Shown one piece after another: positions 535-27,037 of a DNA stretch of 34,662 bases. Positions within the stretch are counted from its first letter, which is position 1. The number at the start of each line of letters is the position of its first letter. The notes under the pieces were generated by a model. It searched no databases and was not told the origin of the DNA. It saw only the letters and a program-made list of their open reading frames with translations. Source of the stretch: Alphaproteobacteria bacterium (lineage in GTDB: Bacteria > Pseudomonadota > Alphaproteobacteria > Micavibrionales > Micavibrionaceae); the NCBI GenBank assembly GCA_018608245.1, contig JABAZY010000045.1, positions 1 through 34,662 of the forward strand, read 5' to 3'. Position numbers and translations under genes: made by a program.

Positions 535-3240
535 TTAAGCGGTCGTGGACACGTTCACTTCGTTTTCAATGTATAAATTATAGTTACCAATTGAATATTG
601 TGTGAAGTCTTGACCATTTGATAATAATTCTGGGATAACCGCAAGCGTTGCATCATCAACGATATCTTGGCTGTCAGCATTTAACCCAACGTTTATTTGT
701 GCTAGTGCATCAGTTTCGTTAGCTGAATTTGCTAACCCATTTATGATTAAGTTTGAACCAGTATTTCCAACAATGTGAAGGTTCTTAACATCACTTGTTT
801 TCATGATATTAAATAAATTTTCAATGCTCAATGTCGCTGTATTGTCCATAAGTTCAAGTTCTTCAATTTGGTCAATTTGTTCGAAATTGATATTGGTGAA
901 ATCAAGGTCAGAGTTTATGCGAATTGCATCCGTTCCTTTGCCACCATCAATATTTCTAAAGTCTGCTTCACCATTAGCCGTGACATCAGAAATTTCGAAT
1001 GTTTGGTGTGGAGCATTTACACCGTTCAGGCTAACATCATCATGACCATTCTCATTTAATAGGTTTGTATAACCTATAACATTTTCACCAGTTCCAGCTG
1101 CGATACCTGTGTAATTAATTGGCGTAGTATCTGGCTCGCCTTCCTTAATCGTTGAACCATCACCAAATGTGTATCGGAAGTCATCAAAACCATCATTATT
1201 AACATCACCAGATTCAAAAATTCCAAAATTAACAGGGTTTTTCCCAGCAGGTATTGGTGTAATAAGATCTGGAACGCCGCCTAATGCGATTGTCCCTGTA
1301 AGCGCGCCACCACCTTCAATGATATAAGTGAAAATTTGTGACCCATCTGTCGTAGAAATAGCGATATCGTCATAGCCATCGCCGTTATAATCACCAATGC
1401 TTGCGCTATCGTCGCAACGATTGTCCAAGAATCTATTTGCAGATGTGAACTCAATGAGATTATTCGTTGAAGCGACAGCATTTCCATTTAAAATAAATGC
1501 TTCAAAGTCTGTGCCAGGGCCGTTTATTGGTTTATCTAACGTGACTAATATGTCGCTGTAACCATCACCATTGATATCGCCTGCAGTTGTTATTGCATTA
1601 CCGCCCTCATTTGCGCTTATACCATCAAATGTTGCCATAGCGTTATATGGATCATCACCAGAATAGATATATAATTTTCCACGGTAAGCTCCTGAGATAT
1701 CAAAATCAGAATCAGCAATCGCAAAGTCGGCTATACCATCACCATTATAATCTCCAACACCTACTGCCTCTTCACCAAACGCTAAACTATTAGTGCCTGT
1801 TTCGGTTGTAGATGTCGCTGCAGATAAAGTTACAGTTCCGCCGCCGCCACCATAAATAATGTCAACTAAACGATTACTTTGATTTGAGTTTATATTATTA
1901 ATCTCATCAACACGTGTGTTTCTTAGAAAATCCATGAAACCGTCATTATTAATATCACCAATTCTCGTGAATAAGGAATTTATGTTAGATACTTGTGGTG
2001 GTGAAATAATTGTATTTGGATCTTGTAGCTCATGTGCTGGTGGCTTTACGCCATCAGGGGCAACGTCATACGTCCCTGCAGCGGTTTGTACAGTACTGTT
2101 ATCAAGTTGTATTTGCTCTTTGGTTAAGTCGTCTCTTAAAGGTTTTTCTGTGACAGTAGACGGATCAAGTTGCAGTATAACCTCTTCTGGTTGAGCCTCC
2201 ACTTCTACTTTTTCTTCAACTTGTGCTTGTACCTCTGCTTCTTCAGCTTCAAGCTCAATTTTTATTTCTTCTGCTTTTTCTTCTTCAGCTTCTAGTTTGT
2301 CTTCTGCTTTTTGTGCTTCGTTGGCAGAGTCATTAATTGAGCTGAATAATTTTGGAATAACAGAACTGGCAGAGCCATAATTGTCATTCATGTCAGTGGC
2401 TTCTAATGTACCAATATTCTTAATGGTAGAATTTAAACCTGTCAGTTTCACAGTTTCAAACTGCTCAGATAAAGTTGTCTCACCTGTTGCATTTTTAACA
2501 ACGATAGCGCCTTCAATCACAGTTACATCGCTTTCACCGTCAGGATTAATACGACCTGCGATAATTGTTCCACGAATACCGATAGAACCGACAGGTGTTT
2601 CAATAGTAACATCGTCTGGATCTTCACGACCAATTAAACCACTGGTGTAAACAAATACACCACGCAGAACAGAAAGGTTTGTAACACCGCTTTCATCTTC
2701 TGCGTTAAATTCATAATCATCAATGCTCATACGGGCATTTTCACTGACAGCCATGCTGGTTTCATCCGTGAATAAAATATTTACAGCACCTGTTTGGGAT
2801 GTTTCAATGATGTCACCTTCATAAATAGGCATACCTAATGATATAGGGCTTGATGTTCCATCTGCATGTTGCACAGTCGCAACACCTGTTACTTCTTCAA
2901 CGGCACCAACTGGACTTTCGTCTGTCATGCTAGAGCTTTGTGCGTATTCAGGGGATGATTGCGCAAATGAGTTAACTAGAGCAGGGCTTAATGTTGAACC
3001 ATTAGGAGCTTCGATTGATGGGGCAGGGGTTGCAAGAAAGTAATCTTGTACCACGACGCTTTGACCATCTGCTGTCTCTAAAATAAGATCTTGTCCATCA
3101 CGAACCATGGTTGAATCGGCGATAAAATCGCTATTTGTCACCTCAATAGTGTCTTTTCCCATTGCATTAACGGTTATTTGATCAGAATTATCAGTTAATC
3201 CTGTATTTTCTGAAAAGTTGTTATCTGTTAAACGTGCCAT
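535..3240 (-). CDS. FecR-domain / FG-GAP repeat surface or type I secreted protein
   Basis: A 901-residue acidic protein, probably cell-surface or secreted. I chose the ATG at 3240 because AGGGGAA lies just upstream; an 18-residue longer frame lacks such a site. There is no N-terminal signal peptide, which fits type I secretion. About residues 110-270 are a FecR-like domain with the hallmark ETPVGSIGIRGT. Residues about 304-354 are a Glu/Ala-rich probable coiled coil. About residues 428-690 hold five FG-GAP-type repeats with calcium-loop signatures such as GDINNDGFMD, GDYNGDGIAD and GDYNGDGYDD, as in integrin-like beta-propellers. The C-terminal about 150 residues resemble the ends of large RTX/VCBS adhesins. 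Only one cysteine is present. It lies between an adenylate cyclase and a cNMP-EAL protein. The precise role (adhesin or matrix protein) is inferred from family architecture. Confidence 0.8.
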   Translation of the reverse strand: MARLTDNNFSENTGLTDNSDQITVNAMGKDTIEVTNSDFIADSTMVRDGQDLILETADGQSVVVQDYFLATPAPSIEAPNGSTLSPALVNSFAQSSPEYAQSSSMTDESPVGAVEEVTGVATVQHADGTSSPISLGMPIYEGDIIETSQTGAVNILFTDETSMAVSENARMSIDDYEFNAEDESGVTNLSVLRGVFVYTSGLIGREDPDDVTIETPVGSIGIRGTIIAGRINPDGESDVTVIEGAIVVKNATGETTLSEQFETVKLTGLNSTIKNIGTLEATDMNDNYGSASSVIPKLFSSINDSANEAQKAEDKLEAEEEKAEEIKIELEAEEAEVQAQVEEKVEVEAQPEEVILQLDPSTVTEKPLRDDLTKEQIQLDNSTVQTAAGTYDVAPDGVKPPAHELQDPNTIISPPQVSNINSLFTRIGDINNDGFMDFLRNTRVDEINNINSNQSNRLVDIIYGGGGGTVTLSAATSTTETGTNSLAFGEEAVGVGDYNGDGIADFAIADSDFDISGAYRGKLYIYSGDDPYNAMATFDGISANEGGNAITTAGDINGDGYSDILVTLDKPINGPGTDFEAFILNGNAVASTNNLIEFTSANRFLDNRCDDSASIGDYNGDGYDDIAISTTDGSQIFTYIIEGGGALTGTIALGGVPDLITPIPAGKNPVNFGIFESGDVNNDGFDDFRYTFGDGSTIKEGEPDTTPINYTGIAAGTGENVIGYTNLLNENGHDDVSLNGVNAPHQTFEISDVTANGEADFRNIDGGKGTDAIRINSDLDFTNINFEQIDQIEELELMDNTATLSIENLFNIMKTSDVKNLHIVGNTGSNLIINGLANSANETDALAQINVGLNADSQDIVDDATLAVIPELLSNGQDFTQYSIGNYNLYIENEVNVSTTA

Positions 3241-3415
3241 TTTTATTCCCCTGTGAATATTTCCCTGTAATCTTAAATGATTGTTTTTAAACAATATTTA
3301 ATAAATTTTTATACGAATATGCCTTTAATACTATTTAAGCCATACCTTCCAAGTATATAGAGAATGTATTAACAGAATTTGAAGATTAGCTAAAAATTTA
3401 TCTTAAATCTGAGAT

Positions 3416-17898: not shown

Positions 17899-19032
17899 TT
17901 AATCTCTGAATAATTCAAGATACCTATCAAATATATATATTTTATTTCTTTTGTTGTTAGTGATTTCTTTGAGTATGTTTTTCTTTTCAAACTCCCTAAT
18001 CAGGCTACTGCTCGATTGTGATGTTGTGTTGAGCAGGTTGCTTGCATTTTTTATAGTTATCGCAGGGCGATCGTATAAATAGTTTAAAAGAGTTTTTGCA
18101 TTTTCTGCTCGTTGCCCAAATTGTGCGATAACTATATCTGTTTCTGCTTTTAGTTTTAAAATTTCTTGAAAAGTATATTTTCCTCTCTCAGCTGTTTCTA
18201 TTATTGCAGTTAAGAAAAATTTTATCCAATGGCTTAAATCATGAGAAGACCTTACTGTTGTTAAGGCGTCATAGTAAGCTCCTTTGTTCCTTTCTAAATA
18301 GTCAGATAAATATAAACATGGTTTATTTAAAAAATTTTCAGACACCAAATATAGTGTGATCAAGAGACGTCCTATACGACCATTTCCATCTTGAAAGGGG
18401 TGTATTGTTTCAAATTGGTAATGTGCAATTGCTATACGAATAAGGTAAGGGACATTAATGTTTTCATTGTGTAAAAAGTTTTCTAAATCCCCCATTAATG
18501 AATTTACTTCTTCGTGATAAGGTGGAATAAAAATAGCATTACTAAGATTAGTTCCTCCAATCCAGTTTTGAGAACTTCGAAATTCTCCAGGACCTTTATT
18601 TTTACCTCGTACGCTTTGCATTAAAAGATTATGTGTTTTCTTTATTAAACGAGAAGAAAGAGGGAACTCTTCCAATTCTTTTAAGGCATGACTCATTGCC
18701 TCAATATAATTCTGTACTTCTTGCCAGTCATCTCGTTTTTCCGGAGAAATTTGTTCTAATTCCTTAACTGCATCTTCAACGTTTGTCTGTGTGCCTTCAA
18801 TTCTACTGGACTTACTTGCTTCTTTTCTAATATGCATTGAAACGAATAGATCAACATTATCTACAATATACGAAAAGGCGTTTAACTCACTAATTTCTTG
18901 AGTGGCTTTTTCAAGTAACGTATTTATAATGGGGTCGCGCCAAGTCCATTCATGATTAATAGTTCTTGGTGAAAAGCTTTTATATTTATATTGCTGTATT
19001 TGAACGCCTGAGGTGAATTCTTCTATTTGCAT
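17899..19032 (-). CDS. Fic/DOC family protein (probable AMPylase)
   Basis: A 377-residue Fic protein that probably transfers AMP from ATP to a protein target. Three parts are seen: an N-terminal Fic_N-like helical domain (1-100), the Fic core (about 110-290) with the complete active-site motif HPFQDGNGRIGR at 211-222, and a C-terminal winged-helix-like domain (about 300-377). The auto-inhibitory motif SSRIEG (75-80; S-x-x-x-E-G) lies N-terminal to the core, making it a class II Fic enzyme, normally self-inhibited by that glutamate. The active site is intact. It has no separate antitoxin gene, in keeping with class II. Base composition is AT-rich. The ribosome site is weak. Confidence 0.93.
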   Translation of the reverse strand: MQIEEFTSGVQIQQYKYKSFSPRTINHEWTWRDPIINTLLEKATQEISELNAFSYIVDNVDLFVSMHIRKEASKSSRIEGTQTNVEDAVKELEQISPEKRDDWQEVQNYIEAMSHALKELEEFPLSSRLIKKTHNLLMQSVRGKNKGPGEFRSSQNWIGGTNLSNAIFIPPYHEEVNSLMGDLENFLHNENINVPYLIRIAIAHYQFETIHPFQDGNGRIGRLLITLYLVSENFLNKPCLYLSDYLERNKGAYYDALTTVRSSHDLSHWIKFFLTAIIETAERGKYTFQEILKLKAETDIVIAQFGQRAENAKTLLNYLYDRPAITIKNASNLLNTTSQSSSSLIREFEKKNILKEITNNKRNKIYIFDRYLELFRD

Positions 19033-19436: not shown

Positions 19437-21248
19437 TCATTTATCATCACCCATCTTCAGGGCATTGATAAACGCGCTTTGGGGGATGTCTACGTTTCCG
19501 TACTGACGCATTTTCTTCTTACCTTTTTTCTGCTTGTCGAGCAGTTTACGTTTACGGGAGACATCACCGCCGTAACATTTGGCGGTCACGTCTTTACGCA
19601 TCGCGGAGATATGTTCGGCGGCGATAATTTTACCCCCCAAACAAGCTTGCACGGCGATTTTGAACATTTGACGTGGGATAAGCTCCTTGAGGCGTTCGCA
19701 TAGGCCACGGCCACGGAATTCGGCGGCATCCTTATGCACAATCATCGCAAGGGCATCGACGTTTTCTTGGTTCACGCGGATTTCTAATTTCACCAAGTCA
19801 TTGGCTTTGTAGCCATCAAGGGAGTAGTCGAAGGACGCATAACCACGCGAGATAGATTTAAGGCGGTCATAAAAATCAAACACAACTTCGTTCAACGGCA
19901 AGCGGTAAACAAGCATCGCACGATTACCCGCGTAAGTGAGTTCGATTTGTTCACCACGACGTTCTTCACATAGTTGGAGGAGACCACCTAAATATTCATC
20001 GGGGACTAAAATAGTTGCCTTGATCCACGGCTCTTCGATTGACTCGATCCGTTGAACCTCTGGCATATCGACAGGGTTATACAGCTCGATCTGTTCGCCG
20101 TTGGTTAGGTTGATTTTATAGACCACGCTGGGCGCGGTGGGGATGAGGTCTAGGTCAAACTCACGCTCTAAACGTTCTTGAATAATTTCCATGTGGAGCA
20201 GTCCAAGGAACCCACAACGAAAACCAAGGCCGAGGGCTTGTGAGCTTTCGACTTCATAATGCATGGAGGAGTCATTGAGCGCTAGCTTGCCCAAGCTCTC
20301 ACGTAGTTTTTCGTATTCACTTGAATCTGCTGGGAAGAGGGAGCAGAACACCATCGGAATGGACGGCTTGAACCCTTTGAGTGGTTCGGCGCAAGGGTTT
20401 TTCTCATCGGTAATTGTGTCGCCGACTTTTGTTTCGGTAATGTCCTTGATGGAAGCCGTGATAAAGCCCATTTCGCCCGGGCCAAGCGCGTCGAGCAAAA
20501 CATGTTTCGGCGTGAAGATACCAACGCGGTCAAGCTCACGCGTGGCGCCATTGGACATGAATTTAACCTTTTGGCCTTTGCGTAAAGAGCCATCAATAAC
20601 ACGCACCAAAATAACCACACCTAGATAGATGTCGTACCAACTATCGATAAGTAGGGCTTTGGTGGGCGCGTCGGCGTCGCCTTCGTGGGGTGGTGGGAGT
20701 TTGGTGATAATGGATTCTAAAAGCTCATCGATATTCAAACCTGTTTTACCAGACACGGCGACGGCATCATCGGCGGGGAGGCCAATCACATCTTCGATTT
20801 GTGTCTTGGCCTTTTCGATGTCGGCGGCGGGTAGGTCGATTTTATTAATAACGGGGAGAATCTCGTGGTTATTCTCAACGGCTTGGTAGACGTTGGCGAG
20901 GGTCTGCGCCTCAACCCCTTGGGTGGAATCAACGACCAAAAGCGAGCCTTCGCAGGAGGCCAGTGAGCGGGAGACTTCATAGGCGAAATCCACGTGTCCT
21001 GGGGTGTCCATTAGGTTTAGCTGATACTCAATGCCGTCTTTGGCGGTATAGGCTAGGCGTACTGTCTGTGATTTGATGGTAATTCCGCGCTCACGCTCAA
21101 TATCCATGTTATCAAGGACTTGCTCGCTCATTTCGCGCTCTTCCAGCCCGCCACAGGTCTGAATTAGGCGGTCGGCGAGGGTGCTTTTACCGTGGTCAAT
21201 ATGCGCGATAATCGCAAAATTACGAATTTCTTTTAATGGCTTTGTCAT
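19437..21248 (-). CDS. lepA: Elongation factor 4 (LepA)
   Basis: A 603-residue translational GTPase that acts on the ribosome, reported to back-translocate or to help initiation and assembly. I set the start at [11 protein letters not shown] (21248), which matches the family; 12 extra upstream codons are not supported. GTPase motifs are intact: [17 protein letters not shown], and NKIDLP. The effector and C-terminal parts follow, with [18 protein letters not shown] and the LepA-specific C-terminus [42 protein letters not shown], quoted here only as a location near residues 500-580. Length is normal. A terminator from the upstream gene separates it from the 556-residue protein gene. Confidence 0.97.
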
Positions 21249-21285
21249 AGAGCAAGACAATAAGGTTACCCGCCAAAAACGCAAG

Positions 21286-21318
21286 AAAAAACAGCCTAAT
21301 CAAGTGATTAAGGCTGTT
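21286..21318 (-). terminator. Intrinsic terminator of the 556-residue protein gene
   Basis: On the minus strand AACAGCCTTAATCA pairs with TGATTAGGCTGTT (one bulged T) around a CT loop and runs into T6. It is 18 bases past the stop at 21336 and upstream of lepA. Confidence 0.85.
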
Positions 21319-21335
21319 ATAAGGTTGGTTAAGAA

Positions 21336-23006
21336 TTATGAATCCATGCCTAAATTATATTGAGTGCCACTATCTACTTCTCTAACAGTATCTCTTAATG
21401 ATTGTTTTTGCTCATCGGTCAGTGGTAGGTCATTAATGCCGTCAAAAGCTTTTCCTAAAAGTGTTGTAGATGCTTGTAATTGTTCATCTGTATCTACTTT
21501 TTGTTCTTCAACTGTGGTGCCTTTGATTGCTCTACCATATTCGGTTGAAAAGGCTGAAGCTGAATTTTTGGCAACATCTTTTAGCGCTTCTTCTAAACTT
21601 GCTTGTTCAGCAGCATCTAAGCCAAAAGATTCCATTTGCTCTACTAATTCTTTTTCCATCACGTTATTCACTTTTCTAAAAGCGGAAGTTGCGTGGTCAT
21701 TTTTCCCCAATGCAACTACACCGTCTTTTACAGGGGGATAAGCAGGATCGTTATTGCTGATTTCTTGATCACTGCCTGCTAATCTACCTATATTGATGCC
21801 CATGCCTTCGACATAACCCATAAGCTCTGGACCATATTTTTGGAAATACTGTGCGTATGGACCAATCATGTGCTCGATTAAACCCATGTAAGGAGTAATC
21901 ATGTCTCTCAACGCTTGAGCTTGCCCCTCTGACATACCTGAATTTTCAACAAGTTGGGTGATCGCAAAGTCTGCACCGCCCACTGGTTTGGGGGATAGCA
22001 AATCCTTAAGGAACTGCATCTTCATTTTCTGATCAACCGTCGCAAAAGCGTTGGTTACACCGCCTGCGTCACGGATAGCTTTGACCATTTCGTGAAGAGC
22101 TTCGGTTTCTGCTACTTTTAATGTTCTTAAATCTTCCGCTTGTGCCTGCGTGATTCCTGGCGTGCTATCATTATCATATGTATTTTTACGGGTAGCGTGT
22201 TCATCCTTCGCATCGTTGTAAACTTGTATAGTGTCGCCAAGCCTATTCAATAATGTCATATCGTAAGATGGGTCATTCCCGATGGTGTTTAAAACACCTT
22301 TTAAGGGGCCAGTTACGTTTGGATCTAAAAATTGATTACCATTTGTATCAGTTTTTACAAGTGACTTGGTGATTGAGCTGACTAAACTGGTGCCACCAGA
22401 AGCAGCAGCTTGGTCTATTTTATCCTTAAGATATATACCAAACTGTGGGTTTGTCTGAGCATGCTTAAAAGCTTGCTCTAATTCGGTATCCATTTGAACC
22501 GCTTCAGCCAATTTGTTTAAATCATCAGCGCCAGTAGTAGCAGTAGTAGCAGTAGTAGTAGCAGCAGTAGCAGTAGCAGTAGCAGTAGCAGGGGTTACAG
22601 TTAAAGTTGTACCTGTTGCATTTGCCAAATCCTGTAAAGCATTTGCATTACCTGCTTTATAATCTGTTAAAATTCTGTCTAGCTCTGCTATTTTTGAGTC
22701 TGGGTTTTCTAAAAGTGCACTAACATAAGAAGGGTTTTGAACAGCAATTTCTGCAAATTGCTGTTGAAAGTTAGTATCAGATGTTTCTATTTTTGTTACA
22801 AAATCTAAAGATTTTTCAATACTGGCTGTATATTGATCATAACCAGTTCTATCCCATAATTTAGCGCTTGAACTACCAACTAATGTAGTTTGAGCGCCTG
22901 TGAGGCCATCTTTGATGGTTGTAAAACGATCAGCAACAGGTGTAGTTTTAAGTGCCTTACTTAAATCGCTTACAGCTTTGTCAATTTCTGGTTTTACTAA
23001 ATCCAT
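21336..23006 (-). CDS. Unknown cysteine-free acidic protein, 556 residues
   Basis: I do not recognise this protein. It is largely helical and acidic, contains no cysteine, and has no obvious N-terminal signal peptide or membrane helix. Residues about 1-130 form one helical region. Residues about 138-158 are an Ala/Thr linker encoded by a triplet repeat. From about 160 to 556 come several helical segments, including GGADFAITQLVENSGMSEGQ and a moderately hydrophobic MITPYMGLIEHMIGPYAQYF. AAGAG precedes the ATG. The gene has its own promoter block, which is a near-copy of the one before the 283-residue gene, and its own terminator. Together with the two upstream genes it forms a cysteine-free set; secretion or surface location is inferred. 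Confidence 0.75.
   Translation of the reverse strand: MDLVKPEIDKAVSDLSKALKTTPVADRFTTIKDGLTGAQTTLVGSSSAKLWDRTGYDQYTASIEKSLDFVTKIETSDTNFQQQFAEIAVQNPSYVSALLENPDSKIAELDRILTDYKAGNANALQDLANATGTTLTVTPATATATATAATTTATTATTGADDLNKLAEAVQMDTELEQAFKHAQTNPQFGIYLKDKIDQAAASGGTSLVSSITKSLVKTDTNGNQFLDPNVTGPLKGVLNTIGNDPSYDMTLLNRLGDTIQVYNDAKDEHATRKNTYDNDSTPGITQAQAEDLRTLKVAETEALHEMVKAIRDAGGVTNAFATVDQKMKMQFLKDLLSPKPVGGADFAITQLVENSGMSEGQAQALRDMITPYMGLIEHMIGPYAQYFQKYGPELMGYVEGMGINIGRLAGSDQEISNNDPAYPPVKDGVVALGKNDHATSAFRKVNNVMEKELVEQMESFGLDAAEQASLEEALKDVAKNSASAFSTEYGRAIKGTTVEEQKVDTDEQLQASTTLLGKAFDGINDLPLTDEQKQSLRDTVREVDSGTQYNLGMDS
22533..22591. repeat. AGT/AGC trinucleotide microsatellite
   Basis: About 20 consecutive AGT or AGC triplets on the plus strand, read on the minus strand as ACT/GCT and encoding a Thr/Ala linker. 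Changes in triplet number would keep the frame and change linker length. Confidence 0.85.
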
Positions 23007-23043
23007 TTATTTCTCTTAACCTTTGTTTTCTTATTTATACCTA

Positions 23044-23108
23044 ATTATAGTAAATACGAGGTTAAGATTACAAATAAAGTGATATTATTGTTTTATATCA
23101 GCTAGTTA
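23044..23108 (-). promoter_or_regulatory. Promoter of the 556-residue protein gene (copy of block at 24870-24934)
   Basis: On the minus strand, -35 TTGTAA (23068-23073) and -10 TATAAT (23044-23049) stand 18 bases apart. Upstream, 23084-23101 is identical over 18 bases (ATTATTGTTTTATATCAG on the plus strand) to 24910-24927, followed by a matching TxGTTA. The core is 37 bases before the start codon. Confidence 0.7.
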
Positions 23109-23151
23109 GAATGTTTTGCCAAGGATTGGAAAGTCCGATTTTGGGCAAAAT

Positions 23152-23187
23152 AAAAGCCGCTAGAACATCTATATTTCAGCGACTTTT
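23152..23187 (-). terminator. Intrinsic terminator of the 228-residue protein gene
   Basis: On the minus strand AAAAGTCGCT pairs with AGCGGCTTTT (one G-U pair) around a 16-base loop, followed by ATTTT. It is 20 bases after the stop. A second, weaker hairpin (TTTTGCC/GGCAAAA) spans 23114-23150. Confidence 0.7.
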
Positions 23188-23207
23188 GGGTGTTTTAAAT
23201 GGGTAAT

Positions 23208-23894
23208 TTACGTGACTGCGCCAGTTGGTGGGAGAGGGCCGCTTGGGGTAATAACACCAGAGGTAAGTGATGTTGTAACCCCAGCCGTTGCTGTCGCTGT
23301 GCTAGCGGCTAATCCACCGACGTTAAAGCTTGTTGTCGGCGATCCAACAGGGGCATTTGTCGCTGCGTTGGCAGAGGCTCCTGTTACAATACTCGTTACT
23401 GGTGAGCCTGGCCCTGCTGTTGAAGGCGTTGTTGCGCCACCAGCTCTAATGCCTGATACTGATGGGAAGGCATTGGTCAATGGTGGTGTTGAACCAGCAG
23501 CTGCTGGTGATGATGCGTTAGGGTTAGTGGCTGAAGGGGTAGCTGATGAGTTCTCTAAAGCATCTTTTTTTGCTCTAAGGCCTGCAAGTGTTCTGGCGGC
23601 ATCTTCTTTTTCAATGCCTTTTATAATTAATCCTACGGTGCCAGCAACGCCTTGGGCTATCATGATAGTCGGCTGTAGCTCTTCTTGAGTCTGTTTGTCC
23701 AACGTGCTAACTAAAACTTTAGCTGTACCAACGGTTCCCGCTGAAAAAGCAGTATTCGTCATGGATAATTTGCCTTTAAACGCATCTTTTTCCATGCCAC
23801 CAATAGAGGTCTCTAACGAAGATATACTACTTCTTGTATCTCTTGCTTTGTTTGCGTCAATGACGGCTTGTGTATCTGTTGTTATTTGTGTCAT
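23208..23894 (-). CDS. Unknown cysteine-free protein with Pro/Ala/Ser/Thr-rich tail, 228 residues
   Basis: I do not recognise this protein. Residues 1-115 are helical and hold a hydrophobic stretch (TIMIAQGVAGTVGLIIKGI) that could insert in a membrane. Residues about 116-228 are a low-complexity Pro/Ala/Ser/Thr/Gly tail, likely disordered, resembling secreted or surface linkers. It has no cysteine and no signal peptide. The ribosome site is weak (GGAA about 8 bases before the ATG). A TTGTAA box at 23934-23939 matches the -35 box of its two neighbours, although no -10 lies at normal distance. A long opposing frame on the plus strand is a compositional shadow. It sits between the 283- and 556-residue genes on the same strand. 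Confidence 0.7.
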   Translation of the reverse strand: MTQITTDTQAVIDANKARDTRSSISSLETSIGGMEKDAFKGKLSMTNTAFSAGTVGTAKVLVSTLDKQTQEELQPTIMIAQGVAGTVGLIIKGIEKEDAARTLAGLRAKKDALENSSATPSATNPNASSPAAAGSTPPLTNAFPSVSGIRAGGATTPSTAGPGSPVTSIVTGASANAATNAPVGSPTTSFNVGGLAASTATATAGVTTSLTSGVITPSGPLPPTGAVT

Positions 23895-23952
23895 TTTTTA
23901 AATTCCATATTTCTTTAATATATACGCTTAATATTACAAAATTTCAAGTAAA

Positions 23953-24804
23953 TTATTCCATATCTAAAGTATTTAGATTGTTTGGTGAGGTGCCCAAGCC
24001 TTTTGCTACTCCTAACACCCCTCCACCTAATACAAAGCCACCTGCTGCATTCGCTAATTGTGCTGTTGGGCTACTCCAATCAACTTCAAGTGCGCCGTTA
24101 AATGCCCCTTGATAAGACTTGCTAGCTGCCAAAGTGAATTTATCAGAATAATCTACATCTATGCCGTCAACAGCACCAACCATTTTTAATCCACTATCTA
24201 TAATATCGACAGCTTGACCAAATAACCATGAAGGAGATGTAACAACTCCGTGGCCTAAAGCCTTTAGTGTATTTGATGCTAAATCTTCAGCGACAGCGCT
24301 ATCATTTGTGGCATTCACAAACTCAGATCCCATATTTTTAATATAGGCTACAGGGCTCTTAGTTACTGATGGGATAGGCTCCATAACATTACCATTAGCA
24401 TCTCTCACTATATCATCCCCAGCAGTATCAAGTGTGCCTTGATCTATGGGCGCAAGGGTTGTTCCGTTAAATGCTAAAGGAGGTCTCCCTTGTTGCTTAC
24501 TTCTAAATAAGTTGATGAAGTATAGTCCAGTTTCTGGACCAAAAATGGGTGCCATTATCGTGTTCCACATCGTGGCTAGGTTTTCAAATTTACCCATCCA
24601 GCCTTCAAGTTTAGTATCATTGCCAACTTGCGCAGTTTCTTTGGAACCAACGGTAGCAATATTAGCTAAAGCATGTGCAGCACCTGGGGCGGCATCTGTG
24701 GCTTTGCCCATAAGAATGTTTCTACCCGCGCCATCAAAGCCGACTTCATCGACTGCTGCTGTACCAACTCCAGCCATTATTAATCCAGGGATCCATCCTA
24801 CCAT
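23953..24804 (-). CDS. Unknown cysteine-free Gly/Ala-rich protein, 283 residues
   Basis: I do not recognise this protein. The N-terminus (MVGWIPGLIMAGVGTAAVDE) and C-terminal region (NAAGGFVLGGGVLGVAKGLG) are glycine-rich and hydrophobic; the middle is mixed, with ENLATMWNTIMAPIFGPETG and an acidic SPSWLFGQAVDIIDSGLK segment. It has no cysteine. The two hydrophobic, glycine-rich ends could be membrane-active, but no classical signal peptide is present. A strong AGGAGA ribosome site precedes the ATG. It is the first of three same-strand genes and has a promoter block nearly identical to that of the 556-residue gene. Confidence 0.7.
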   Translation of the reverse strand: MVGWIPGLIMAGVGTAAVDEVGFDGAGRNILMGKATDAAPGAAHALANIATVGSKETAQVGNDTKLEGWMGKFENLATMWNTIMAPIFGPETGLYFINLFRSKQQGRPPLAFNGTTLAPIDQGTLDTAGDDIVRDANGNVMEPIPSVTKSPVAYIKNMGSEFVNATNDSAVAEDLASNTLKALGHGVVTSPSWLFGQAVDIIDSGLKMVGAVDGIDVDYSDKFTLAASKSYQGAFNGALEVDWSSPTAQLANAAGGFVLGGGVLGVAKGLGTSPNNLNTLDME

Positions 24805-24869: not shown

Positions 24870-24934
24870 ATTATATCTAATTCGACTGTGTTATTACAAA
24901 TGGGAGCAGATTATTGTTTTATATCAGTTGGTTA
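24870..24934 (-). promoter_or_regulatory. Promoter of the 283-residue protein gene (copy of block at 23044-23108)
   Basis: On the minus strand, -35 TTGTAA (24894-24899) and -10 TATAAT (24870-24875) are 18 bases apart. The upstream 18-base block at 24910-24927 is identical to 23084-23101. The leader to the ATG is about 60 bases and contains a small ACCCTA/TAGGGG hairpin. Confidence 0.7.
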
Positions 24935-25333: not shown

Positions 25334-26959
25334 TTAATGCCTAAAGTGGCGCATTCCGGTGTAAACCATGGCTAAACCACGTTCATCAGCGGCTTTGATG
25401 ACTTCTTCGTCACGGATAGAGCCACCCGGTTGGATAACGGCTGTCACACCTGCTTCAGCGGCGGCAATTAGGCCATCAGCGAAGGGGAAGAAGGCATCGG
25501 AGGCCACAACAGAGCCTTTGGCAAGAGATTGGGTTAATCCAAGTGCTTCTGCGGCTTCCATTGCCTTAATCGCGGCAATACGTGAAGAATCAAGTCTGTT
25601 CATCTGTCCCGCGCCAATACCGACGGTTGCACCGTCTTTAGCGTAGACAATGGCGTTTGATTTAACGTGTTTGGCGACCTTGAAGGCAAAGAGCATATCG
25701 CGGAATTCTTCTTCTGTTGGCTCACGCTCAGAAACAACATTTAGCTCTTCGCGGGTAATAACGCCATTGTCGCAATCTTGTACTAATAGACCACCAGCTA
25801 CGCGTGATACGAGTCGTCTCGTATCATGTATATCAGGGAGCCCGCCAGTGGTTAAAACACGAAGGTTTTTCTTGGTTTTAAGAACATCAAAAGCACCAGC
25901 CTCAATGTCTGGCGCGATGATAACTTCACTGAATACTTCAATAATTTGTTTGGCTACATCAGCGGTCAATGTTCTGTTCAGGGCAATAATGCCACCAAAG
26001 GCACTGACGGGGTCGCATTGTAGGGCGCGACCATAAGCCTGAAGCACGTTATCGCCTGTCGCAACACCACAAGGGTTGGCATGTTTAATAATCGCTACAG
26101 CGGGTGCATCAAATTCAGCCACCATCTCAAAAGCGGCGTCTGTGTCATTGATATTATTGTAAGAAAGCTCTTTTCCTTGGATTTGTTTTGCGTGCGCTGC
26201 GCCTGGGCGTTCCGATCCATCAACATGGTAAAGTGCTGCATTTTGATGTGGGTTTTCACCGTATCTTAATGGCTGTAATAATGTGCCAGAAAAACTGATA
26301 CGGCGGGGGAACGATTCGTCTTCAAGTTGTTTGGTAAACCAGCTAGAAATGTTCGAATCGTAAGTCGCTGTCATGGCATAGGCATTGGCGGCTAATTTTT
26401 GGCGAAGCTTATAAGTGGTCGCACCGTGATGATCTTTTAGTTCCTCGATTACCTCTTCGTAATCTTGAGGATCAGTGATGATGGTTACGAATTCATGGTT
26501 TTTTGCGGCAGAGCGGATCATGGCTGGGCCACCAATATCGATATTCTCAATACATTCATCGTATTCTGCGCCCTTGGCGACAGTTTCGGAGAAAGGGTAG
26601 AGGTTAACAACCACTAGATCAATGTCACCAATATCATGATCTTTTTGTGCCTGAACGTGGCTTTCAACGCTACGACGGGACAAAATACCACCATGAACTT
26701 TGGGGTGAAGGGTTTTCACACGGCCATCCATCATTTCTGGGAAACCAGTATGTTCGGATACGTCCTTAACCTTAATGCCAGCTTCTGACATTGCTTTGGC
26801 TGTACCACCTGTTGAAAGGATTTCTACGCCATGTTCTGCGAGTGCTTTGGCAAAGTCAATCAACCCTTCTTTATCAGAAACGGAGAGCAGGGCACGTTTG
26901 ACCTTTACTTCACGGGGGTCACGAATAGTTTGGCGTTTTTCAGCAGTGTTAGCAGACAT
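25334..26959 (-). CDS. purH: Bifunctional AICAR transformylase / IMP cyclohydrolase
   Basis: A bifunctional purine-synthesis enzyme for the last two steps to IMP: formyl transfer from 10-formyl-THF to AICAR, then ring closure. The N-terminal MGS-like domain starts [18 protein letters not shown] and holds STGGTAKAM and [10 protein letters not shown]; the C-terminal transformylase domain has [15 protein letters not shown], the catalytic KHANPCGVA, and near the end [17 protein letters not shown]. Length is about 541 residues from the start I chose (MSANTAEK). In-frame ATGs 5 and 12 codons further upstream are possible, none with a clear ribosome site. FolD in this window makes its cofactor. Two hairpin repeats lie just past the stop. 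Confidence 0.96.
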
Positions 26960-27037
26960 AGAATCGTTTTTCATGTTGTTTAAAAGGATAAGCATAAATT
27001 TATAGACTAAGCGCCGTTTTTCGCAAGTCTTAAGGTG

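What the first reader, a model, noticed from the sequence alone, without database searches (positions are those of the whole stretch)
21336..24804. Three adjacent unrecognised proteins with no cysteine in 1,067 residues: candidate novel exported system
Three same-strand genes (283, 228 and 556 residues) contain no cysteine at all and show glycine-rich hydrophobic ends, a disordered Pro/Ser/Thr tail and an Ala/Thr linker, features of secreted or surface proteins. None matches a family I know. Two have the same duplicated promoter and two have clear terminators, so they are separately but probably coordinately transcribed. This is the best candidate for an undescribed system in the window; that they act together is inference.
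Basis: partly seen in the sequence, partly recalled or inferred. Interest (0 to 1): 0.75.

Follow-up and report, generated by a model that had tools for sequence, protein, structure and literature searches.

The report
Fast-evolving cysteine-free protein locus near lepA
Between two housekeeping genes, relatives of the bacterial predator Micavibrio often keep a variable set of unusual proteins that contain no cysteine and change very fast, probably proteins sent out of the cell; no database family we searched describes them, and their function is unproven.

Summary
Three same-strand genes (A 283, B 228, C 556 residues) lie between purH and lepA, read as coding, contain no cysteine, and match no Pfam, PHROGs, NCBIfam or PADLOC family above cut-off. 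A and C share an exact 18-base upstream box plus TTGTAA-N18-TATAAT. Hairpin terminators follow B and C, so the likely units are A-B and C. The genome belongs to the Micavibrio family.

C is a real protein family: 12 of 142 genomes of the order, in three genera. In all 12 it lies just upstream of lepA, with a Gly-rich, hydrophobic A-like neighbour (judged by eye). Its median identity is 26%, against 79% for neighbouring PurH. Window A and B have no detectable homologue.

Elsewhere in the family the same gap often holds giant proteins, about half of them cysteine-free, with a small ~120-residue protein (P1). P1 occurs in 87 of 104 genomes and, at other sites, is often beside cysteine-free partners. 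C is probably a distant relative of those partners (masked hhalign 82.5%; reversed controls 0.4-2.7%). P1 was not found in the window genome.

Best reading: a lineage-specific locus of rapidly evolving exported proteins, probably aimed at other cells. Export, route and target are inference.

The parts
21336..23006 (-). Gene C, 556 aa, Cys-free, predicted all-helical (low-confidence model); two NP-x-aromatic motifs (residues 91 and 186) on either side of an Ala/Thr linker
23208..23894 (-). Gene B, 228 aa, Cys-free, disordered-looking Pro/Ser/Thr/Ala tail; no homologue found
23953..24804 (-). Gene A, 283 aa, Cys-free, Gly/Ala-rich hydrophobic ends; no homologue found by sequence, but A-like genes hold this place in relatives
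23044..23073 (-). Promoter-like TTGTAA-N18-TATAAT of gene C
23084..23101 (-). 18-base upstream box CTGATATAAAACAATAAT of gene C
24870..24899 (-). Promoter-like TTGTAA-N18-TATAAT of A-B
24910..24927 (-). Identical 18-base upstream box of A-B
21278..21330 (-). Hairpin plus T-run, likely terminator after C (z -4.87)
23140..23200 (-). Hairpin plus T-run, likely terminator after B (z -3.34)
19437..21284 (-). lepA, conserved downstream flank of the locus
   Evidence: a match in 104 of 104 genomes, some only to fragments or related GTPases
25334..26995 (-). purH, upstream flank of the locus

Best explanation
The locus is a fast-evolving exported-protein set that belongs to the Micavibrio lineage, carried at a fixed place between purH and lepA. 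SHOWN: C is a conserved family at this place; in all 12 genomes where it was found it has a Gly-rich, hydrophobic A-like neighbour (by eye); both kinds are almost always Cys-free; in the window A-B and C have near-identical promoter sequences; C diverges far faster than its neighbour PurH. INFERRED: the proteins leave the cell without a Sec signal. The likeliest route is a type I exporter, of which the genome has the HlyD parts. C is a soluble helical-repeat protein that works with A; A engages a membrane through its Gly-rich segments; B is a disordered linker or accessory. The target is probably another cell's envelope (prey or competitor), because this would explain both Cys-freedom and the rapid sequence change.
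For: C family: leave-one-out profile E from 2.8e-45 to 1.1e-10 for 11 of 11 members, best of 20 shuffles per member 0.38; found in 12 of 142 genomes of the order (9 of 10 of the window's genus, 2 of 2 and 1 of 1 in two others; the miss, G003, is 77% complete). The member in G011 was not used to build the profile and again lies between lepA and a Gly-rich Cys-free gene. Cys-freedom: C 12 of 12; A-like 11 of 12, G004 having one Cys and G011 being a fragment; background 5 of 86, one of them a gene of this locus. Hyper-divergence: PurH median 79% identity (45 pairs; G103 has no PurH in the fetched stretch), C median 26%, maximum 40% (55 pairs). Shared promoters; visibly similar elements upstream of A-like and C genes in relatives (by eye, untested). 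Two HlyD-type (TIGR01843) genes over the curated cut-off in this genome, a level reached in 1 of 14 control genomes. In M. aeruginosavorus ARL-13, type I secretion rises in the attachment phase and most of the highly expressed attack-phase genes are hypothetical (PMC3189940, section 14). Family-wide parallel: Cys-free genes beside P1 in 10 of 14 loci (partner chosen by eye) against 16 of 203 other genes there.
Against: No signal peptide is evident by eye, a lipobox is impossible without Cys, there is no RTX repeat and no strong transmembrane window, so nothing in the sequence proves export. The C model has low confidence (pLDDT 56.5, pTM 0.35) and finds no structural relative. Window A is not detectably homologous to other A-like genes. 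The ABC and TolC parts of a type I exporter were not searched. 15 of 40 family regions have no Cys-free gene of 200 aa or more at this place, so the pattern is common but not universal. That this organism preys on bacteria is not shown; at least one Micavibrionales genome is described as photoheterotrophic (PMC9933672, start of abstract in the listing). Cys-freedom also occurs in low-complexity cytoplasmic proteins (general knowledge).
Confidence: 0.5

Rival explanations
1. The proteins stay inside: a rapidly diverging scaffold or cell-pole/envelope organiser (helical repeat C plus low-complexity A and B), with Cys-freedom a by-product of composition.
For: C is predicted all-helical, at low confidence, and its profile resembles designed helical-repeat proteins; no export signal is seen; linkers and tails suit scaffolds.
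Against: C is largely not low-complexity outside its linker yet lacks Cys in 12 of 12 members; divergence to 26% beside 79% for PurH is unusual for a scaffold with fixed internal partners.
Confidence: 0.22
2. C is an escort (chaperone-like) protein for A: its paired NP-capped helices hold the hydrophobic Gly-rich segments of A until A is delivered, as Sti1/ubiquilin-type domains do for hydrophobic segments (function recalled, no call).
For: C lies near a hydrophobic Gly-rich gene in 12 of 12 genomes (by eye); same promoter; NP motifs at residues 91 and 186; one of 11 C members matches PF17830 STI1-HOP_DP, weakly (E 0.098).
Against: 10 of 11 members do not match that domain, and a further scan of 10 C and partner proteins gave none; no structure of sufficient quality.
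Confidence: 0.1
3. Remnant or cargo of a phage or mobile element sitting at a hotspot between lepA and purH.
For: The gap holds different gene sets in different genera; two relatives' A-like fragments match phage lysin, tape-measure and unknown profiles through Gly-rich segments (best E 1.7e-6 and 3e-6).
Against: The window proteins hit no PHROG; C has no match in 50,697 phage records; C is confined to three genera at one fixed place, which looks vertical; in the window the three genes fill the gap and none looks like an integrase (by eye).
Confidence: 0.06
4. Little-constrained orphan genes kept by chance between two essential genes.
For: Window A and B have no homologues; very low identities.
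Against: C is retained in 12 of the 13 genomes of its genera, the exception being incomplete, with promoter-like sequences and terminators in the window and coding bias; Cys-freedom persists despite divergence.
Confidence: 0.05

Closest known systems
P1-partner proteins of the same bacterial family (uncatalogued in the libraries searched; found here)
   Same: Often Cys-free, fast-evolving, helical NP motifs, Ala/Pro-rich linker, disordered tail; masked profile comparison with the C family 82.5% probability.
   Different: They are encoded beside P1, a small protein not found in the window genome; the shared stretch is only about 55 columns.
Type I secreted (RTX) proteins, including RTX lipases and S-layer proteins
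   Same: Some subclasses lack cysteine, and RTX proteins leave by type I secretion (PMC3034196 sections 27 and 29, passages); the window genome has two HlyD genes.
   Different: No GGxGxD repeats in A, B or C; no exporter gene within the locus.
Effector plus dedicated small chaperone pairs (type III chaperones, type VI Eag chaperones; known from the abstracts listed)
   Same: In other genera a small ~120-residue protein repeatedly sits beside a larger variable partner.
   Different: P1 matches no Pfam family above cut-off and no clear solved fold was found; it was not found in the window genome; no injection machine was looked for in this genome.
M. aeruginosavorus lepA-upstream locus (G037 and G038)
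   Same: Same place; P1 and Cys-free proteins (209-438 aa in G037, 227 aa in G038).
   Different: No profile similarity to C or window A in three G037 proteins compared; one weak match to the A-like profile (27.7%, 42 columns, Gly-rich).

Membership tests
C family (defined here) | Matches a profile built without it | tested here: met
   Leave-one-out E 1.1e-28 for window C
C family (defined here) | Located just upstream of lepA, same strand | tested here: met
   12 of 12 C-bearing genomes; at most one ORF of 70 aa or more between in the 10 relatives checked
A-like proteins of relatives | Sequence similarity of window A to them | tested here: not met
   No hit in leave-one-out (where only 4 of 11 members are found at E below 0.001) or hhalign
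A-like proteins of relatives | Gly-rich hydrophobic Cys-free protein upstream of C | tested here: met
   Position and composition; likeness judged by eye
P1-partner family | Sequence relationship of C to P1 partners | tested here: inconclusive
   hhalign with linkers masked: 82.5% with the widest partner set, 59.8% and 13.2% with two smaller sets; single C members 1.1-41.8%; reversed controls 0.4-2.7%. The HMMER hit of window C vanished on masking (1.2e-5 to 2.2)
P1-partner family | Encoded beside P1 | tested here: not met
   No P1 in the window genome with two profiles
RTX / type I secretion substrates | GGxGxD calcium-binding repeats | tested here: not met
   0 in A, B, C
RTX / type I secretion substrates | Type I export machinery in the same genome | tested here: inconclusive
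   HlyD part only: two TIGR01843 genes over cut-off; ABC and TolC parts not searched
RTX / type I secretion substrates | Uncleaved C-terminal secretion signal | not testable with these tools
   No predictor available
Anti-phage defence systems | Match to a PADLOC model | tested here: not met
   0 families for A, B, C
Sti1/Hop DP domain proteins | Match to PF17830 | tested here: inconclusive
   1 of 11 C members, E 0.098; window C none
Phage virion proteins | Match to PHROGs or phage records | tested here: not met
   Window trio 0 PHROGs, C 0 of 50,697 phage records; A and B not searched in phage records; two relatives' A-like fragments do match

The most novel reading that the evidence does not exclude
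The Micavibrio family has an undescribed export-and-attack system: large, mostly cysteine-free, rapidly diversifying proteins, each matched in most genera to a small P1/P2 protein (escort or immunity), encoded at several genomic sites and very often at the lepA-purH gap. The window's genus has lost P1 at this gap and runs a P1-free form, in which C and the Gly-rich A form a two-part membrane-active complex delivered to other cells.
Probability: 0.25. Interest if true: 0.85.

Novelty: new variant of a known kind. Interest (0 to 1): 0.58.

Why it matters
How epibiotic predators such as Micavibrio attack and drain prey is an open question; the ARL-13 genome paper reports that most of its highly expressed attack-phase genes are hypothetical (PMC3189940, section 14). 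A fixed genomic address with fast-evolving, cysteine-free proteins, and a small marker protein (P1) present in 87 of 104 genomes and often beside such proteins, gives a short candidate list that can be tested directly in a cultured predator.

Tried and rejected
Direct family searches of A, B and C in Pfam, PHROGs, NCBIfam and PADLOC: nothing above cut-off (one sub-threshold Pfam match of A, E 0.085). PHROG hits of two relatives' A-like fragments to lysin and tape-measure profiles were judged a Gly-rich composition effect because the window trio has none; this was not tested further.

An apparent HMMER hit of window C to the P1-partner family (E 1.2e-5) was rejected as driven by the Ala/Thr linker: masked, it fell to 2.2. 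Only the masked profile-profile result is used, and it is called probable, not shown.

Homology of C or A to the giant proteins of other genera: none seen in the groups compared.

STI1-type chaperone fold for C: one of 11 members at E 0.098 and none on a second set of 10 C and partner proteins; kept only as a rival.

Profile hits of C to two designed repeat proteins (E 2.8e-12 and 4.3e-7) are sums of repeated weak matches (best single stretch 0.0019), so they support 'helical repeat' at most.

Structure search with the C model gave nothing usable; the model is weak. P1 was folded fairly well (pLDDT 79, pTM 0.67), but neither Foldseek (best E 0.022) nor VIA-align (best Z 2.9) found a clear relative; this does not exclude a known fold.

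Literature: listings (titles and starts of abstracts of the listed papers only); in none did I see this locus described. The search for Micavibrio with lepA, secreted and hypothetical returned 0 papers. PMC3189940: abstract, passages and sections 5, 10 and 14 seen; its supplementary expression tables could not be read. PMC3034196 and PMC7551394: passages only.

Rows dropped before counts: in the Fisher test (13 of 14) I left out the lepA piece of L083 and a 201-residue ORF of L086 with one Cys; with that ORF it is 13 of 15. The inside set used ORFs of at least 150 aa and the background at least 200 aa, and one of the five Cys-free background genes is an A-like gene of this very locus (L093). 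In one search one P1 copy of L175 without a same-strand partner was left out, and five P1 loci (L162, L163, L165, L174, L178), where my small P1 profile did not mark P1, were not counted; partners were picked by eye. In one search the partner ORFs were pre-filtered for at most 2 Cys.
Full report
WHAT WAS CHECKED. The three ORFs exist as described: C 21336-23006, B 23208-23894 and A 23953-24804, all on the minus strand between purH (25334-26995) and lepA (19437-21284). None has a cysteine. At the local rate of 0.95% Cys, 1,067 Cys-free residues have a chance of 3.8e-5. Codon scores are near those of known genes and above the other five frames; the closest rival is an antisense frame of B, 0.095 against 0.169.

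TRANSCRIPTION. An exact 18-base box lies upstream of both A and C, in each case followed at the same spacing by TTGTAA-N18-TATAAT. At up to 3 mismatches the box is not rare in the genome (15 places, reversed control 9), but only three places have 0 or 1 mismatch. Hairpins with T-runs follow C and B, and none separates A from B. The likely units are A-B and C. The third good copy of the box (one mismatch) lies upstream of what I read as the start of the 16S rRNA gene on another contig (the rRNA reading is by eye and recalled). In relatives, boxes with 1 to 3 mismatches sit upstream of A of G004, C of G103 and C of G005; elsewhere the best match has 4 to 8. Similar -35/-10-like elements are visible upstream of most first genes (by eye, not tested).

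WHOSE GENOME. The window is one contig of a 2.02 Mb genome. Its family includes a genome whose single contig is 2,481,983 bases, exactly the size of Micavibrio aeruginosavorus ARL-13 (PMC3189940 section 5). Record titles of related loci include 'Micavibrio sp.' and 'Micavibrionaceae'. Whether the window organism is a predator is not known.

RELATIVES OF THE THREE PROTEINS. Plain searches of 104 family genomes found no homologue of A or B and four distant ones of C, all just upstream of lepA. I fetched the region upstream of lepA in 40 of the 104 genomes (lepA places). In the window's genus and two others this region holds a C-type gene and, further upstream, a Gly-rich hydrophobic gene (by eye). 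C lies just upstream of lepA with at most one ORF of 70 aa or more in between. C is a genuine family: leave-one-out profile E-values run from 2.8e-45 to 1.1e-10 in 11 of 11, with no shuffled control below 0.38. Searched over 142 genomes of the order, the profile finds C in 12: 9 of 10 of the genus (the miss is 77% complete), 2 of 2 of a second genus, 1 of 1 of a third. One of the 12, G011, was not in the profile and has the same arrangement. The A-like genes are weakly related at best: 4 of 11 are recovered by leave-one-out at E below 0.001, and window A is not among them; later attempts also failed. B-position genes in G005 and G001 are not significantly similar to B.

HOW FAST, HOW CYSTEINE-FREE. 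PurH has a median identity of 79% (45 genome pairs) and C of 26%, never above 40% (55 pairs). Despite this, C is Cys-free in 12 of 12 and the A-like gene in 11 of 12, against 5 of 86 background genes, one of them from this locus. Of all 40 fetched regions, 25 have at least one Cys-free lepA-strand ORF of 200 aa or more between lepA and purH and 15 have none; 38 of 73 such ORFs are Cys-free.

THE FAMILY-WIDE PARALLEL. In other genera the gap holds giants of 1,086 to 2,101 residues in 13 of 40 regions, seven of the 13 Cys-free, in many cases with one or two small proteins of ~120-150 residues that I call P1 and P2. P1 is in 87 of 104 genomes, in up to 11 copies. Away from lepA it again sits beside a variable partner, Cys-free in 10 of 14 loci against 16 of 203 other genes there. 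One partner family occurs in 12 genomes: 11 full-length copies were read, all Cys-free (after a filter for at most 2 Cys), and P1 was found in 11 of the 12 loci. The window genome has no P1 by two profiles. P1 is predicted as four strands, a helix and two strands, without a clear relative among solved structures.

IS C ONE OF THESE PARTNERS? Probably. With low-complexity linkers masked, the C profile matches the widest partner profile at 82.5% probability over 55 columns; with two smaller partner sets it is 59.8% and 13.2%; single C members give 1.1-41.8%; reversed and unrelated controls give 0.1-2.7%. A first HMMER hit proved to be a linker artefact. C and partners also share a layout of NP-capped helices, an Ala/Pro/Thr linker and a disordered-looking tail (by eye). 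No similarity of C to the giants was found.

MECHANISM. Shown: conserved place, conserved C with a hydrophobic Gly-rich neighbour, shared promoter sequences in the window, no cysteine, very fast change. Inferred: export without a Sec signal, probably by a type I exporter (two HlyD genes over the cut-off; other exporter parts not searched), and action on another cell. Cys-freedom is known in some type I substrates (PMC3034196 passages; PMC7551394 passage), but A, B and C lack RTX repeats, so they are not filed there. [quoted passage not shown] Against export: no signal is evident by eye, no transmembrane window was found and the C model is weak.

VERDICT. 'Novel exported system' is reasonable but unproven; the trio as such is not conserved by sequence, whereas C with an A-like neighbour is.

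Noticed in passing
L055:7296-7700, L048:1011-1376 and 87 of 104 family genomes: P1, a ~120-residue protein family with no Pfam match above cut-off, in up to 11 copies per genome, often beside a variable Cys-free gene; P2 is a divergent relative in tandem in several loci.
   Followed up: partly
L048, L049, L051, L053, L054, L055, L066 upstream of lepA: Giant proteins of 1,377-2,096 residues without a single cysteine; four of the seven were scanned and have no Pfam family above cut-off; they are only loosely related to each other.
   Followed up: partly
G000:C63:741-758 (L184): The 18-base box of A and C recurs with one mismatch upstream of what looks like the 16S rRNA gene, hinting at a shared control element.
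   Followed up: no
window 535-3294: A 919-residue protein with FecR-like start and FG-GAP-like repeats (by eye) and one cysteine, likely another surface protein.
   Followed up: no
L041, L043, L044, L048, L053, L055, L062, L064, L070, L071 just upstream of lepA, opposite strand: A small membrane-anchored-looking protein ending in Cys-Gly recurs divergently from lepA (by eye); the window has no room for it.
   Followed up: no
L057:3157-4521 (beside the locus in G103): A Cys-free 454-residue protein that looks flagellin-like by eye sits next to the A-like gene.
   Followed up: no
window 17899-19032: A Fic-domain-like protein (by eye) downstream of lepA; not found in the 40 lepA-upstream regions, which do not cover that side.
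   Followed up: no
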